This document shows positions 12,437 through 61,899 of a stretch of 64,000 bases of DNA, in pieces. The position numbers and the translations under genes were made by a program. How positions within the stretch are numbered: the stretch's first letter is position 1; each line of letters starts with the position of its first letter. This stretch comes from Mycolicibacterium arabiense. GTDB lineage: Bacteria; Actinomycetota; Actinomycetes; Mycobacteriales; Mycobacteriaceae. The notes under the pieces are model-generated. The model was not told the DNA's origin. It did not search any database and worked only from the letters and a program-made list of their open reading frames with translations. The DNA is taken from NCBI RefSeq assembly GCF_010731815.2, contig NZ_AP022593.1, positions 3,844,001-3,908,000 on the forward strand, given 5' to 3'.

Positions 12437-12913
12437 CTAGCCCGTGCCCACGCACACGCCGCCGGCGCATGCTTCGGCACCACCGGGACCTGCACCTGCG
12501 CCCGCACCCGGGACGCCTGCAGAGGCTCCACCCGGTCCGGCACCGGCACCGCCGCCGGGCACCTCCGCGGTGGCTCCGCCGGGTCCTGCGCCTGCGCCTG
12601 CGCCGGGCACACCCGCGGACGCGCCGCCGGGTCCTGCGCCTGCGCCCGCACCCGGGACGCCGGCCGTCGCGCCACCTTCACCGGCTCCTGCACCCGGCGC
12701 CGGGGCACCCGAAGGTGCCGGGGCGGGCGCGGGGCTCGACGGCGTGGTGGTCATGGTCGTTGCCGACGTCGTGGTCGAGGTGCTGGTGCTCGAGGTGGAG
12801 GACTCGCTGCCGCTGTCGCTTCCACCGCAGGCCACGGTCATGGTGCTCACGGCGAACGCCGCGGCGATGGCCGCGGTGACGGAGAGTCGACGGGAAGTCC
12901 GTTTGTCGGTCAT
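12437..12913 (-). CDS. small exported Gly/Ala/Pro repeat protein with lipobox-like Cys (paralogue of the gene at 61369)
   Basis: A 158-residue protein of unrecognised function. Residues 1-28 form an export signal (basic N-terminus, then TAAIAAAFAVST) ending in MTVAC, a slightly atypical lipobox with Cys29. A Ser/Thr-rich linker (32-60) and a Pro/Ala stretch (61-72) follow. From residue 87 there are repeats of 16 residues, e.g. PGAGAGAGPGGASAGV, three full copies (12512-12655) plus degenerate copies on both sides. The C-terminus is ACAGGVCVGTG, a CxxGxCVGxG motif shared with the other paralogue. ATG 12913 has AGGAG eleven bases upstream. It starts 43 bases after the DUF222 endonuclease stop on the same strand, so they may be cotranscribed. 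A plus-strand Pro-rich frame opposite is a composition shadow. Confidence 0.75.
   Translation of the reverse strand: MTDKRTSRRLSVTAAIAAAFAVSTMTVACGGSDSGSESSTSSTSTSTTTSATTMTTTPSSPAPAPAPSGAPAPGAGAGEGGATAGVPGAGAGAGPGGASAGVPGAGAGAGPGGATAEVPGGGAGAGPGGASAGVPGAGAGAGPGGAEACAGGVCVGTG
12512..12655 (-). repeat. three tandem 48-bp coding units
   Basis: Three in-frame 48-bp units encode P-G-x-G-A-G-A-G-P-G-G-A-x-A-x-V. A 14-codon degenerate unit precedes them and a partly matching unit follows into the C-terminal Cys motif. The period and consensus equal those of the array at 61582-61869, 49 kb away. Confidence 0.8.
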
Positions 12914-12956: not shown

Positions 12957-14684
12957 TTACCCAACCTTCGTACTTTTCATGCGCCGCGGATGGCGGGCGG
13001 GTTCGCCGTTACGCGGCCGGAGGCCGGTCTCCGTTTCGTTGAGGCGGCGGTCGTCGGCGATGCGTTGCGCGCGGTCCTGGGCGCGGGTGCGTTGGCGGCG
13101 GGGCATGGTGAGGCCCTTGTTCGTCTGTGCCCGTGCTCGTTCGGTTTCTTCGGTGGTGATCGTGACCGGCGCGGTGGGCGCGCAGAGGCTCGGGAACAGC
13201 AGCTTGCTGCCCGGCTCGGTGGTGTACGTCTGGCCCCGTGGCGAAGTCCAAATGATGGTGCCGTCTGGGAGCTGTCGATCGCGCCACCCGTTGGGCCCGC
13301 CCCAGAAGGTCTTCAAGAGGTGGTGTCGACGGCATAGGCATTTGAGGTTCGACGCACAGGTCGGTCCAATCGGCCACGCGATGGTGTGGTCGATGTCGGT
13401 GTTCGTGGCTGGTTCGCTGCAGCCGGGGAAGCGGCAGGTGAGGTCTCGACAGCGGACGAATTCGGCGAGTCGGCGCGATGGGGCGTAACGGGGTTCGGGT
13501 GGTGCGTCGCCGGGGTGGCAGACCTTGCGGACCTTCGCGGTGAGCGCGAAGCGGCGGGCCAGGGCGCCGGGGAGGAACGGGCCGCCGAGGATGGCGCCGG
13601 CGCGGGTGGCAGGGGATTCGCACTTGGCATGAGCGGCTGCTCCGCCGGAGACGGGCGTGTCTGGTGTGTCGCCAGCGTTGCTGCCCAACTCTGGTTGGTC
13701 CGCGGCTTCGGCGTCGGGTTCAGCGCCGGCGTCTGGCGAGTCATGGGTACTGCAAGCATCGACTTCGGGATCACTACCGTTGCCGCCCAACTCATCCCAC
13801 GTGGTGATCTCCGAGAGCGGCCGGTCGTACAGCGGCTCCAAGTCACCGTCGAGCGCGGCGTCTTGAGCCTTCGCGGCGTCGGAGGTCTCGTCGAGGGTGT
13901 CCTCGTTGACCACGACGTAGACCACCGCATTGCCCTTCGGAGGTGTGGTGGGGCCCGGGCAGTGGTCGCTACCGCACAGGCAGGGCAGGTAGTCGAGTGC
14001 GTGGGTGATGGAGTGGACCGCATCGGCGCGACGCTGCTCGACCGTCCGCGGATCGCCCGGGCACACGGTCGAGGCCAGGAGGTTCAGGCGCTTCTCGAGG
14101 GCCTTGCCGTGGGTCGCGACCAGGGTGCCGAACATCGTGGCCGTGCCCGAGCCGTCGTAGTCGAACTGGATGTTGCGGCCCTTGGCCACGAGCTTCGTGC
14201 GGTACACCCCGTGCGGGTCGTGCTCGGCGACGATGGCATCGATGGCGGTGTTGAGCTTGTCCTCAGACATCGGCGCCCAGCCGGTCAAGACGTCGGCGAA
14301 GGCCTTGTCAACTGCTATCTGGGCGTCCCGGTCTCGCACCAGGGCGGTACGAGCGGTGATCGCCGAGACCACCCGGTAGGACACCAGCCCGTCGGCGAAT
14401 AGTGCCGCCACGCGAGGCAGCCGGTCTCGCAGCGCAGTCGCAATCAACAACTGATGCGACGCCGCGCCCTGGGTGATGTTCTGCTCGGCGCCAATCTCCG
14501 CGGCGACCGCCCCCCAGTTGTCCAAGTACCACTGCTCCCGATCCGCGGACCCGTCGGCGGCATAGGCCTGATCCAAGAGCACGACCATCGCCGCGAGGCG
14601 GCGGGCCGTGGCGGCGGCCTCGACCCGCGCCCAATCCCCGACGGTGCAGGAGGGCCCGAAGGCGGTGACTAACTCTTCGAACAT
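12957..14684 (-). CDS. DUF222 / HNH endonuclease (13E12 repeat family)
   Basis: A 575-residue protein with an N-terminal DUF222 helical region (about residues 1-290) and a C-terminal HNH nuclease domain: CRFPGCSEPATNTDIDHTIAW supplies zinc-type cysteines and the Asp-His pair, and NLKCLCRRHHLLK the Asn and final His pair. Such genes occur in many copies in mycobacteria and are associated with 13E12-type repetitive/mobile sequences. A low-complexity acidic linker of about 120 residues (Asp/Glu/Ser/Pro-rich) separates the two parts. The start MFEELVTAFG at 14684 is preferred over an ATG at 14765, whose extra 27 residues are not typical. No flanking direct repeats were recognised, so mobility is not shown. 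Biological target unknown. Confidence 0.88.
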   Translation of the reverse strand: MFEELVTAFGPSCTVGDWARVEAAATARRLAAMVVLLDQAYAADGSADREQWYLDNWGAVAAEIGAEQNITQGAASHQLLIATALRDRLPRVAALFADGLVSYRVVSAITARTALVRDRDAQIAVDKAFADVLTGWAPMSEDKLNTAIDAIVAEHDPHGVYRTKLVAKGRNIQFDYDGSGTATMFGTLVATHGKALEKRLNLLASTVCPGDPRTVEQRRADAVHSITHALDYLPCLCGSDHCPGPTTPPKGNAVVYVVVNEDTLDETSDAAKAQDAALDGDLEPLYDRPLSEITTWDELGGNGSDPEVDACSTHDSPDAGAEPDAEAADQPELGSNAGDTPDTPVSGGAAAHAKCESPATRAGAILGGPFLPGALARRFALTAKVRKVCHPGDAPPEPRYAPSRRLAEFVRCRDLTCRFPGCSEPATNTDIDHTIAWPIGPTCASNLKCLCRRHHLLKTFWGGPNGWRDRQLPDGTIIWTSPRGQTYTTEPGSKLLFPSLCAPTAPVTITTEETERARAQTNKGLTMPRRQRTRAQDRAQRIADDRRLNETETGLRPRNGEPARHPRRMKSTKVG

Positions 14685-14867
14685 GCTTTCGAATTTACGG
14701 AGACGCCGCAGCGGTCGACAGGCCACGAACGCGAGAAACGGCGGATCTGTGGATGAATGCTGCACTGTGGATGAACCGATCCGCCAAAGATCAAGATGTC
14801 GGACCCCCGGTGTAGTGAGCGTTCACCGCAGGTTTGCCAAACACGACCGTGGTCAATATCACTGCCC

Positions 14868-16144: not shown

Positions 16145-16247
16145 CCGCCGGACCGTTTGAGCGCGTGCGTAGCGGCTATCTTGCCGAACGTCCGACTGGC
16201 TCCCGGCACGCGGCGTTGCGCACCGGCTCACGCATCCGAGGTGCACG

Positions 16248-17777
16248 ATGACCAACACCGACCCGCCCCGGAGCGAAGGCGCTTCGCTCGTGCCAGGGAC
16301 GGTCGTCGCCAGGCGCTACCGACTCGTCACCATGCGCGGATCGGCGCCGCGTCTCCAGTTCTGGGAGGCCATCGACGTCCCCAGTGGCCACCACGTGGCG
16401 CTGACGCTCGTCGACACCGCTGGGGTCATGCCCGTCGAGCAGGTCAACGAAGTCCTGTCGCGGACCTCGCGGCTGCGTGGCATGCACGTCGTGGGCATCG
16501 CGCGCGTGCTGGACGTCGTGCACACCGGCGCCTTCGGCGTCGTCGCATGTGAGTGGGTGCACGGCGGGTCGCTCCGCGAGGTGGTCGGCACCTCGCCCTC
16601 GCCGTTGGCGGCTGCGGCGGCGATGGAGTCGCTGATCGTCGCGGCCGATAGCGGGCACCGGGCCGGCCTGGTGCTGGGCATCGACCACCCCGACCGGATC
16701 CGCATCAGCACCGACGGCCATGCCGTCCTGGCCTTCCCCGCCACCATGCCCGACGCCACGCGCGACGAGGATCTGCGCGGCATCGGCGGCGTCCTGTATG
16801 CGCTGCTGGTCGATCGCTGGCCTCCGCAGGACCCGATGCCCGACGGGTGGACGGCCGCCGATCTCACCCCGGCGGGCTGGCCGACCGAGCCGGCGGAGAT
16901 CGACCACGGCATCCCGTTCCTCATCTCGAGTGCGGCTGCAGGTCTCTTGCGGCCCGGCAGCGGAATCGGTTCGGGTGGAGACGTTCTGGGGATGCTTCGC
17001 CAGGGTCGAGCCGCCGCCGAACCCCAGTACCCGGGCGACGGCCCCGTCGGCCCGCCGACCATGGAGCCCCGGCCCGGCGGCTACGCGGGCTTCCGCAACG
17101 TCGACACCGCAGAGCGGGAGGTGCAGGCGCGTCGGAAGCTCATGACGGCAGTGCTCGTCGGGGCGGCGGTGATGTTCGTGATCGCCGTGGCGTCGCTTGG
17201 GGTGAGCATCAACCGCATGCTCGGCGGCCCCGACGACATCGCCATCAACGCCGATCGGCTCGGCCTCGTTCCCACCACACTTGCCGACGCGCCCCCGGTC
17301 GCACGCGAGGCCGCAGCAGCCGGAGCGCCCATCACGCCGGCCGCGGCCGCCGTCTTCTCACCCGACGGGTCGCCGGACAACCCGGGGGCGGCGGGCCAGG
17401 CCGTCGACGGCGATCCCGCGACCGCGTGGGCGACCGACCGGTACTTCGACGCCGATCCCTTCCCAGCGTTCAAGCAGGGGGTGGGGCTGCTCCTCGAGAT
17501 GCCGCGGCCAGCCAACCTCGCGGCCCTGACGATCGACGTGAAGGGCAGCGGCACCGTGGTCGAGATCCGCAGCGCCGACGGTCAGCCCGGCAGTGTGGCC
17601 GACACCAAGAAGCTGGTCGACGCCACCACGCTGCAACCCGGATCGAACCGCATTCCCGTATCCACGGACGCGCAAGTCTCCACCGTGCTGGTGTGGATCA
17701 CCAAGCTGGGCAGCACCGACGGCGACAACGTCGCCGAGATCTCCGAGATCAAGGCGTTCACCACGGCACCCGCCTGA
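16248..17777 (+). CDS. orphan MviN-type pseudokinase with one membrane segment and an extracytoplasmic discoidin-like domain
   Basis: A 509-residue protein. Residues about 20-250 form a kinase-like fold (RYRLVTMRGSAPRLQFWEAID, GIARVLDVVHTGAFG, EWVHGGSLREV), but catalytic residues are absent: the beta-3 Lys is replaced (VALTLVD) and no HRD or DFG motif exists. A single transmembrane helix lies at about 298-321 (LMTAVLVGAAVMFVIAVASL), then an extracytoplasmic domain with FSPDGSPDNPG, AVDGDPATAWATD and ISEIKAF, typical of discoidin/F5-8C-like domains. From memory this order matches the C-terminal half of mycobacterial MviN (MurJ fused to a pseudokinase that recruits FhaA), here without the flippase half. 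The ATG follows a 103-base gap; it is probably monocistronic. Confidence 0.8.
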   Translation: MTNTDPPRSEGASLVPGTVVARRYRLVTMRGSAPRLQFWEAIDVPSGHHVALTLVDTAGVMPVEQVNEVLSRTSRLRGMHVVGIARVLDVVHTGAFGVVACEWVHGGSLREVVGTSPSPLAAAAAMESLIVAADSGHRAGLVLGIDHPDRIRISTDGHAVLAFPATMPDATRDEDLRGIGGVLYALLVDRWPPQDPMPDGWTAADLTPAGWPTEPAEIDHGIPFLISSAAAGLLRPGSGIGSGGDVLGMLRQGRAAAEPQYPGDGPVGPPTMEPRPGGYAGFRNVDTAEREVQARRKLMTAVLVGAAVMFVIAVASLGVSINRMLGGPDDIAINADRLGLVPTTLADAPPVAREAAAAGAPITPAAAAVFSPDGSPDNPGAAGQAVDGDPATAWATDRYFDADPFPAFKQGVGLLLEMPRPANLAALTIDVKGSGTVVEIRSADGQPGSVADTKKLVDATTLQPGSNRIPVSTDAQVSTVLVWITKLGSTDGDNVAEISEIKAFTTAPA

Positions 17778-61368: not shown

Positions 61369-61899
61369 ATGATCACGAAATCACGAATTACGGGAATGGT
61401 GCTGACCGGTGCTGCCTCCGCGTTGCTCGCGGCGGGGCCGATGGTCGGGGCGGTGACGGTCGGCAGCTCTGCCGGCGTCGTGTCGGGGGCTTCCTACGTG
61501 GCCGGTGGACCTGCCGGGTGCATCGACCCCGACGGCACCGGCTGCGCGGTGGCCGGGCCGGGTGGCGCGGGTGCGGCGGTGCCGGGTGCGGGTGCGCAGG
61601 CCGGTCCGGGTGGCGCGGGTGCGGCGGTGCCAGGCGCCGGCGCTCAAGCAGGTCCCGGTGGCGCCGGTGCGGCGGTGCCGGGTGCGGGCGCGGTGGCCGG
61701 CCCCGAGGGTGCAGGCGCCTTCGTGCCGGGTGCGGGTGCGCAGGCCGGGCCGGGTGGCGCGGGTGCCGTGGTGCCGGGCGCGGGTGCGCAGGCCGGACCG
61801 GGTGGCGCAGGCGCGTCGGTCCCGGGTGCTGGTGCACAGGCCGGTCCCGGTGGCGCTGGTGCCTGCGTGCCGGGCTTCTGCGTCGGCGCCGGCGGCTAA
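61369..61899 (+). CDS. secreted Gly/Ala/Pro 16-residue repeat protein (paralogue of the gene at 12437)
   Basis: A 176-residue protein of unknown function. A signal peptide (ITGMVLTGAASALLAAGPMVGAVTVG) is followed by GCIDPDGTGCAVAG and then six perfect-length 16-residue repeats (72-167), consensus PGAGAQAGPGGAGAxV. The C-terminus ACVPGFCVGAGG gives the same CxxGxCVGxG motif as the other paralogue. Two more Cys (51, 59) could pair with the last two. ATG 61369 has only a weak ribosome-binding site. No lipobox is seen, unlike the paralogue. A strong terminator lies 19 bases after the stop. Possibly a cell-surface or wall-associated structural protein; that is inference. Confidence 0.78.
   Translation: MITKSRITGMVLTGAASALLAAGPMVGAVTVGSSAGVVSGASYVAGGPAGCIDPDGTGCAVAGPGGAGAAVPGAGAQAGPGGAGAAVPGAGAQAGPGGAGAAVPGAGAVAGPEGAGAFVPGAGAQAGPGGAGAVVPGAGAQAGPGGAGASVPGAGAQAGPGGAGACVPGFCVGAGG
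61582..61869 (+). repeat. six tandem 48-bp coding units
   Basis: Six in-frame 48-bp copies, each encoding PGAGAxAGPxGAGAxV, in units 61582-61629, 61630-61677, 61678-61725, 61726-61773, 61774-61821 and 61822-61869, preceded by a partial copy. Codons differ between copies, so this is older than a recent slip duplication. No spacers separate the units, so it is not a CRISPR array. Confidence 0.85.

What the first reader, a model, noticed from the sequence alone, without database searches (positions are those of the whole stretch)
12437..12913. Two distant exported proteins share a 16-residue repeat and a CxxGxCVGxG C-terminus
The protein at 12437-12913 and the one at 61369-61899 lie 49 kb apart and differ in their first part (a lipobox-like Cys versus a plain signal peptide). 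Both are built of exactly 16-residue units of the form P-G-x-G-A-x-A-G-P-G-G-A-x-A-x-V, and both end in CxxGxCVGxG. This is seen directly. A shared repeat plus a shared Cys terminus suggests a small family of surface proteins that I do not recognise. The Cys pair may form a disulfide or cross-link the chains. Repeat number varies (about four to five versus six), which would permit length variation between strains.
Basis: partly seen in the sequence, partly recalled or inferred. Interest (0 to 1): 0.72.

Follow-up and report, generated by a model that had tools for sequence, protein, structure and literature searches.

The report
Cysteine-capped silk-like mycobacterial repeat proteins
Two exported proteins in this mycobacterial genome belong to an unnamed family, found only in one genus in our searches, that is built of 16- or 17-residue silk-like glycine-alanine repeats whose last repeat carries a pair of cysteines, probably a stapled end cap.

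Summary
Confirmed. Both ORFs exist. Their 16-residue period beats all 5,000 shuffles and 5,000 Markov chains per protein, and CxxGxCVGxG occurs only at these two places in six frames of the window. Units differ mostly at synonymous sites (54 of 67 and 106 of 128 codon differences; about a third expected), so selection acts on the protein.

It is a real, larger family, restricted to one genus in my sampling: 41 of 118 genus genomes, 0 of 186 other-genus genomes of the family, 0 of 193 others of the phylum. No Pfam or NCBIfam model passes its cut-off. One class is secreted with Cys pairs at both ends; the other is lipoprotein-like, and its tail also follows FAS1 domains. Of 74 proteins collected, 70 end in CX4C or CX5C; in 69 of 70 the first Cys lies six residues after the last Pro.

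I infer a silk-like beta-hairpin stack: Pro-Gly turns every eight residues, an Ala/Val face, a Gly/variable face, and Cys as cross-strand partners stapling the ends. AlphaFold models are low-confidence and disagree on topology. Function and localisation are untested.

The parts
12437..12913 (-). Lipoprotein-class member (P0001, 158 aa): signal sequence with Cys29, Ser/Thr- and Ala/Pro-rich linker, 5 units of 16 residues, tail ACAGGVCVGTG
   Evidence: relatives with the same tail
12827..12829 (-). Codon of Cys29, candidate lipidated Cys (..TVAC-GG; Thr at -3 is a relaxed lipobox, read by eye)
   Evidence: sequence; relatives with LTAC in P0023 and L051
12440..12685 (-). Repeat region of P0001, residues 77-158, five 16-residue units and the last two residues; the last unit carries Cys149 and Cys154
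12452..12469 (-). Terminal Cys pair CAGGVC (unit positions 9 and 14)
61369..61899 (+). Secreted-class member (P0002, 176 aa): signal peptide, N-terminal Cys pair, 7 units of 16 residues, tail ACVPGFCVGAGG
61519..61545 (+). N-terminal cap C51-IDPDGTG-C59 of P0002
   Evidence: both Cys columns invariant in the 23 secreted-class proteins aligned; caps listed
61552..61896 (+). Repeat region and tail of P0002, residues 62-176
61864..61881 (+). Terminal Cys pair CVPGFC (unit positions 9 and 14)

Best explanation
The two proteins are members of one mycobacterial family of small exported repeat proteins. Shown: the unit is A1-G2-P3-G4-G5-A6-x7-A8-x9-V10-P11-G12-A13-G14-A15-x16, kept by selection on the protein; the tail is a last unit with Cys at positions 9 and 14 (15 in the CX5C form). 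Inferred: the chain folds into a silk-like antiparallel beta-hairpin stack with tight turns at P3-G4 and P11-G12, that is every eight residues. One face is Ala/Val (positions 1, 6, 8, 10, 13, 15); the other is Gly plus the variable residues (2, 5, 7, 9, 14, 16). Positions 9 and 14 are cross-strand partners across the P11-G12 turn on the same face, so the Cys pair staples the last hairpin. In the secreted class a second Cys pair, typically C-x-N-[PA]-D-G-T-x-C, staples the first. The stapled stack would act as a rigid structural module of the envelope: free or sheet-forming through the Ala face in the secreted class, and held away from a lipid anchor by a linker or a FAS1 domain in the lipoprotein class. 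Location and function are inferred, not shown.
For: Synonymous codon differences between units (pairwise, last unit left out): 54 of 67 and 106 of 128, against 0.33 and 0.32 of random point changes. Of 74 proteins collected, 70 end in CX4C or CX5C with no other Cys in the 40 residues before, and in 69 of these 70 the first Cys is exactly 6 residues after the nearest preceding Pro, which is unit position 9. Among 95 distinct 16-residue units, positions 1, 6, 8, 10, 13, 15 are 95% Ala/Val with mean entropy 0.60 bits; positions 2, 5, 7, 9, 14, 16 have 1.86 bits and hold the three most variable positions (7, 9, 16). This face assignment was written down before the count, but after reading sequences. 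All 30 tailed proteins with 17-residue units have CX5C; 16-residue ones have 22 CX4C and 11 CX5C; 7 were of undetermined type. AlphaFold of P0001 residues 70-158 puts a 2-residue turn every eight residues, on the PG pairs (EG in the first unit, GG in the tail), with strands between and confidence rising to about 70 at the Cys end. A Cys pair stands before the first unit in 59 of 74: 56 by script, plus L073, L079 and L075 by eye. For silk, passages of PMC12512099 and PMC10571837 describe antiparallel sheets with turns every eight residues.
Against: Both AlphaFold models are poor: mean pLDDT 53.7 and 53.2, pTM 0.41 and 0.34; in the P0001 model residues 1-26 of 89 are below 50. They disagree: the model of P0002 has short bridges with a 16-residue period, more like a solenoid. 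Foldseek against the PDB gives nothing at E <= 0.001 for either. No expression, localisation or disulfide data. The lipobox of P0001 is relaxed. Eleven proteins with 16-residue units have CX5C, so turn length and Cys spacing are not strictly coupled. Related proteins are counted as if independent, and unit pairs within a gene are not independent.
Confidence: 0.5

Rival explanations
1. A beta-solenoid with 16-residue rungs: Ala/Val inside, Gly and variable residues outside, PG at the two corners, and Cys pairs closing the ends.
For: AlphaFold of P0002 shows regular bridges with a 16-residue period. Many of its 43 non-significant PDB matches are beta-solenoids (best E 0.29, a synthetic solenoid). 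The two-faced pattern also fits inside/outside.
Against: In a two-sided solenoid, positions 9 and 14 point outward from opposite sheets, so the conserved Cys pair would be hard to bond (reasoning, not modelled). The P0001 model is a meander. pLDDT is 54.
Confidence: 0.2
2. An elastomeric, largely disordered spacer: VPGAG is an elastin-type VPGxG motif and GPGGA a flagelliform-silk-type GPGGx motif, so the chain may be a spring between anchor and Cys tail.
For: Both motifs are read directly from the units; their assignment to elastin and silk is recalled. Low AlphaFold confidence. Ser/Thr and Ala/Pro linker in the lipoprotein class.
Against: An entropic spring does not need strict Ala/Val alternation (95% on one face), a Cys at unit position 9 (69 of 70), or capped ends.
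Confidence: 0.2
3. The Cys tail is a sorting, attachment or cross-linking signal (to other chains, mycothiol or an envelope partner) rather than an intramolecular staple; the repeat only presents it.
For: The tail ACAGGVCVG is identical in the five lipoprotein-class proteins aligned, at the very C-terminus after different preceding parts, including FAS1 (P0012, P0019). Variants exist (L051, L057, L078).
Against: The motif is variable in the secreted class apart from Cys and spacing. It lies at a fixed place within a repeat unit and, in the secreted class, is mirrored by an N-terminal pair; both suggest capping.
Confidence: 0.1

Closest known systems
Silk fibroin crystalline repeats (Bombyx mori GAGAGS/GAGAGA)
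   Same: Alternating Gly-Ala strands; chain-folded sheets with turns every eight residues are one published model (passages of PMC12512099; PMC10571837).
   Different: Here the turn is fixed by Pro-Gly, the array is short, and Cys pairs close the ends. No sequence homology claimed.
PE_PGRS proteins
   Same: Mycobacterial, exported, Gly/Ala-rich and repetitive.
   Different: No PE domain, a signal sequence instead; 16/17-residue units rather than glycine triplets; Cys caps. The published PGRS model is a polyglycine II sandwich (passages of PMC9436101).
FAS1 (fasciclin) lipoproteins of mycobacteria (MPT70/MPT83 type; these names recalled)
   Same: P0012 and P0019 carry a Fasciclin domain followed by the same repeat and Cys tail.
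   Different: The window's proteins have no Fasciclin domain. Of three Fasciclin matches in the host genome only that in L018 was read; it has no such tail.
Elastin-like VPGxG and flagelliform GPGGx repeats
   Same: The unit contains VPGAG and GPGGA; names recalled.
   Different: Strict 16/17-residue period, two-faced alternation and Cys-bearing last unit.

Membership tests
The family described here (genus-restricted, unnamed) | Tandem 16- or 17-residue units with P3-[GDE]4 and [VI]10-P11 turns | tested here: met
   anchor spacings among 74 proteins are 16 (115) and 17 (102); the other values listed total 19, of which 13 are 35
The family described here (genus-restricted, unnamed) | Terminal Cys pair CX4-5C beginning at unit position 9 | tested here: met
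   both window proteins
PE_PGRS | N-terminal PE domain | tested here: not met
   Pfam scan of both proteins finds none
PE_PGRS | Glycine-triplet PGRS region | tested here: not met
   Top lags are 16 and 32 (0.74-0.79), then 7, 9, 23, 25 or 30 at 0.38-0.46; Gly in the unit lies at 2, 4, 5, 12, 14
FAS1 lipoproteins | Fasciclin domain PF02469 | tested here: not met
   None in either window protein; present in P0012 and by precomputed annotation in P0019
Bacterial lipoprotein (P0001 only) | Signal sequence with lipobox and Cys | tested here: inconclusive
   Cys29 after a hydrophobic stretch, but Thr at -3; NCBIfam lipoprotein models match only below their cut-offs
Silk-like beta-lamella (works like) | Antiparallel sheet with turns every eight residues | tested here: inconclusive
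   AlphaFold of P0001 fits, that of P0002 does not clearly; both low confidence
Silk-like beta-lamella (works like) | Self-assembly or fibre formation | not testable with these tools
   needs protein
Cornifin (SPRR), PF02389 | Score over Pfam's cut-off | tested here: not met
   L025 30.3 and L002 18.9 against 34.8; no match listed for the window proteins

The most novel reading that the evidence does not exclude
Mycobacteria make short natural silk-like proteins: disulfide-stapled Gly-Ala hairpin stacks, exported either free or on a lipid anchor, that assemble through their Ala face into a protein layer or fibre on the envelope, with species tuning the number of units and the residues displayed on the variable face.
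Probability: 0.25. Interest if true: 0.82.

Novelty: new variant of a known kind. Interest (0 to 1): 0.56.

Why it matters
An unannotated protein family present in about a third of sampled genomes of a heavily studied genus (41 of 118), yet in no sampled genome outside it, is a candidate for part of what is special about the mycobacterial envelope. If the hairpin model holds, it would be a compact, disulfide-capped natural version of the silk lamella. It would be small enough to solve by NMR or crystallography, and would bear on how Gly-Ala sheets fold. The repeat-plus-Cys module can also be recognised in other exported proteins (FAS1 proteins).

Tried and rejected
Composition only: rejected, because period, Cys placement and genus restriction are specific. 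Recent DNA amplification: rejected, because units differ mainly at synonymous sites. Anchored nucleator plus secreted subunit (curli-like pairing of the two classes): weakened, because G136, G342, G358 and G370 have the lipoprotein class but no other match to profile A6 at E <= 0.001.

Conserved operon for the window genes: none found. The 13-kb region of P0001 shares no flanking ORF (E <= 1e-10, 60 bits) with seven lipoprotein-class loci. In the wider comparison of 51 loci the P0002 region shares none. The P0001 region shares one ORF, at window 16173-17774, some 3 kb away, with L038 (251 bits, 50% identity); overlapping frames there also match L038 and L049 weakly (64-73 bits). Both of those loci hold secreted-class genes. 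I did not identify that ORF. One search gave no output because of sequence naming and was redone.

Phages and plasmids: no tblastn match to P0002 (the low-complexity filter may hide some). PDB sequence search with P0002: 0 matches at E <= 0.1. Protein searches scored only the 7,996 and 7,990 candidates sharing most words, so they are incomplete.

Sensitivity: the profile, built on the secreted class, misses G136, which holds a lipoprotein-class gene (L020). Absence elsewhere is at that sensitivity; for the lipoprotein tail it rests on the exact pattern. Literature: seven searches listed no paper whose title or listed abstract concerns these proteins. Three of the seven returned papers; of those only one was opened, PMC11237697 (one passage), which is about a PE-PGRS protein. 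Subscription journals are mostly missing.

The 74-protein set mixes phmmer hits, profile hits and five loci found with the tail pattern itself (L020-L024), includes close relatives, and uses stop-to-stop frames for loci. The four without a tail pair are P0010, P0017, P0022 and P0027. In one search the script counted L075 as lipobox-like; it has an N-cap by eye, so 13 rather than 14 are lipoprotein-like there.

Full report
OBSERVATION. The 16-residue period is strict: anchors at 77, 93, 109, 125, 141 in P0001 and at 62 to 158 in P0002. It exceeds every one of 5,000 shuffles and 5,000 Markov chains for each protein, at any lag from 1 to 39. CxxGxCVGxG is found only at these two C-termini in 127,996 six-frame codons.

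THE FRAMES ARE CODING. Comparing units pairwise within each gene and leaving out the last, 54 of 67 (P0001) and 106 of 128 (P0002) codon differences are synonymous, and most nucleotide changes are at third positions (66 of 82; 117 of 148). About one third of random point changes would be synonymous. The repeats are therefore old, and the amino-acid pattern is kept by selection. The long antisense ORF over P0001 listed is most likely a shadow of this pattern.

THE FAMILY. No Pfam or NCBIfam model passes its cut-off for the two proteins or for seven relatives. Protein searches gave 20 hits for P0002 and 15 for P0001 at E <= 0.001, overlapping, from capped candidate lists. The exact tail coding pattern occurs in 6 of 401 genomes: 6 of the 52 of the window's genus and 0 of 349 in 30 other genera; the reversed control pattern has 0. 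A profile of the secreted class finds 41 of 118 genomes of the genus at E <= 1e-10. A broader profile at E <= 1e-8 finds 9 of 201 family genomes, all nine among the 15 listed of the genus, so 0 of 186 in other genera. It finds 3 of 198 phylum genomes, all three among the 5 of the genus, so 0 of 193 others. That profile misses the lipoprotein-class gene of G136, so it is not fully sensitive. Named holders are Mycobacterium sp. AZCC_0083, a Mycobacterium MAG and two strains of Mycolicibacterium hodleri.

TWO CLASSES. The secreted class has a signal peptide, a C-x(4, 5 or 7)-C cap (59 of 74 proteins: 56 by script, plus L073, L075 and L079 by eye), units, and CX4C or CX5C. The lipoprotein class has a candidate lipidated Cys, a Ser/Thr- and Ala/Pro-rich linker, units, and mostly ACAGGVCVG (variants ACVGSVCVG in L051, ACAGGICVG in L057, GGCVNGVGCLG in L078; P0027 lacks the tail). 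Thirteen of 74 show a lipobox-like match and no N-cap (leaving out L075). P0003 and P0019 fit neither by script: P0003 has an unrelated N-terminal stretch and P0019 starts inside the Fasciclin part. P0012 and P0019 put a Fasciclin domain before the same module (P0012 rescanned). The window's genome has three members: P0001, P0002 and a secreted one at G000:C2:1861170 (L002). A second unit type of 17 residues is common: among 74 proteins the spacings are 16 (115 times) and 17 (102), the rest listed totalling 19.

WHAT THE TAIL IS. The tail is not appended: it is a last repeat unit with two replacements. In 69 of 70 proteins with a tail pair, the first Cys is six residues after the nearest preceding Pro, which is unit position 9, and there is no other Cys in the preceding 40 residues in all 70. 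The second Cys is at position 14, or 15 in the CX5C form. All 30 tailed proteins with 17-residue units have CX5C; proteins with 16-residue units split 22 to 11; 7 were of undetermined type (Fisher p = 4e-9 for the 63, ignoring relatedness).

STRUCTURE, INFERRED. Before counting I wrote down two faces for a hairpin with turns at P3-G4 and P11-G12. Over 95 distinct 16-residue units, face 1 (1, 6, 8, 10, 13, 15) is 75% Ala and 20% Val with mean entropy 0.60 bits. Face 2 (2, 5, 7, 9, 14, 16) is half Gly with 1.86 bits and holds the three most variable positions. Positions 9 and 14 are then partners across the P11-G12 turn on face 2, just where the conserved Cys are. AlphaFold for P0001 residues 70-158 gives this meander along its length, but with mean pLDDT 53. 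For P0002 it gives short bridges with a 16-residue period and mean pLDDT 54 (that job held rows outside the tool's list). Foldseek finds nothing significant for either: best E 0.29, a synthetic solenoid, for P0002, and 0.21 for P0001, whose 19 weak matches include the OspA mutants 2ol8 and 2ol6. The topology is therefore open; the turns at Pro-Gly and the two-faced pattern are the firmer part. Turns every eight residues in an antiparallel Ala-Gly sheet are a published model for silk (passages read in PMC12512099, and PMC10571837). The favoured NPDGT-type turn in many N-caps, and the preference of hairpin disulfides for cross-strand sites, are recalled, not tested.

SURROUNDINGS. P0001 lies between a TetR-family gene and a DUF222 protein; P0002 between an MFS transporter and a mechanosensitive-channel-like protein. 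The immediate neighbours of neither are shared with the other loci compared; one ORF about 3 kb from P0001 (window 16173-17774) resembles an ORF in L038 and was not identified. By contrast, 13 loci of the 17-residue type share a phosphoglucose isomerase gene, a short-chain dehydrogenase gene, or both, near the family gene (single-linkage clusters; domains checked in L056 only). That points to a vertically kept chromosomal site. No operon partner of the window genes hints at function. The lipoprotein class occurs without another family match in four genomes, so the classes are not an obligatory pair.

JUDGEMENT. The finding is real and understated: an unannotated, genus-restricted family with a tightly conserved architecture. 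The mechanism offered, a Cys-stapled silk-like hairpin stack in the envelope, is the reading that best explains where the Cys and the variable residues lie. It needs protein to test.

Noticed in passing
G000:C2:1861170-1861724 (L002:1477-2031:+): Third family member of the host genome, secreted class, 184 aa, tail FCIANVGCVGGSR; the ORF before it looks like a PTS membrane protein (by eye, not scanned).
   Followed up: partly
L036, L041, L042, L044, L046, L047, L050, L052, L056, L073, L074, L079, L083: Members with 17-residue units lie near phosphoglucose isomerase and/or a short-chain dehydrogenase gene, a conserved chromosomal site in many species.
   Followed up: partly
P0012, P0019: Fasciclin-domain proteins carrying the same repeat and Cys tail, so the module is shared between different exported proteins.
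   Followed up: partly
L078:1453-1908 (+): Lipoprotein-class relative with a different unit (APGVxGGAGPGGxSGS) and tail GGCVNGVGCLGTG.
   Followed up: no
P0027: Lipoprotein-like relative with the repeats but without a Cys tail, ending VPGLPPVHVP; possibly a lost cap.
   Followed up: no
window 12957-14765 (-): DUF222 protein directly upstream of P0001 on the same strand.
   Followed up: no
window 16173-17774 (+): Unidentified ORF that resembles one beside the secreted-class gene of L038 (251 bits, 50% identity over 386 residues).
   Followed up: no
P0010: Metagenomic ORF nearly identical to P0002 around the N-cap but leaving the pattern after one unit.
   Followed up: no
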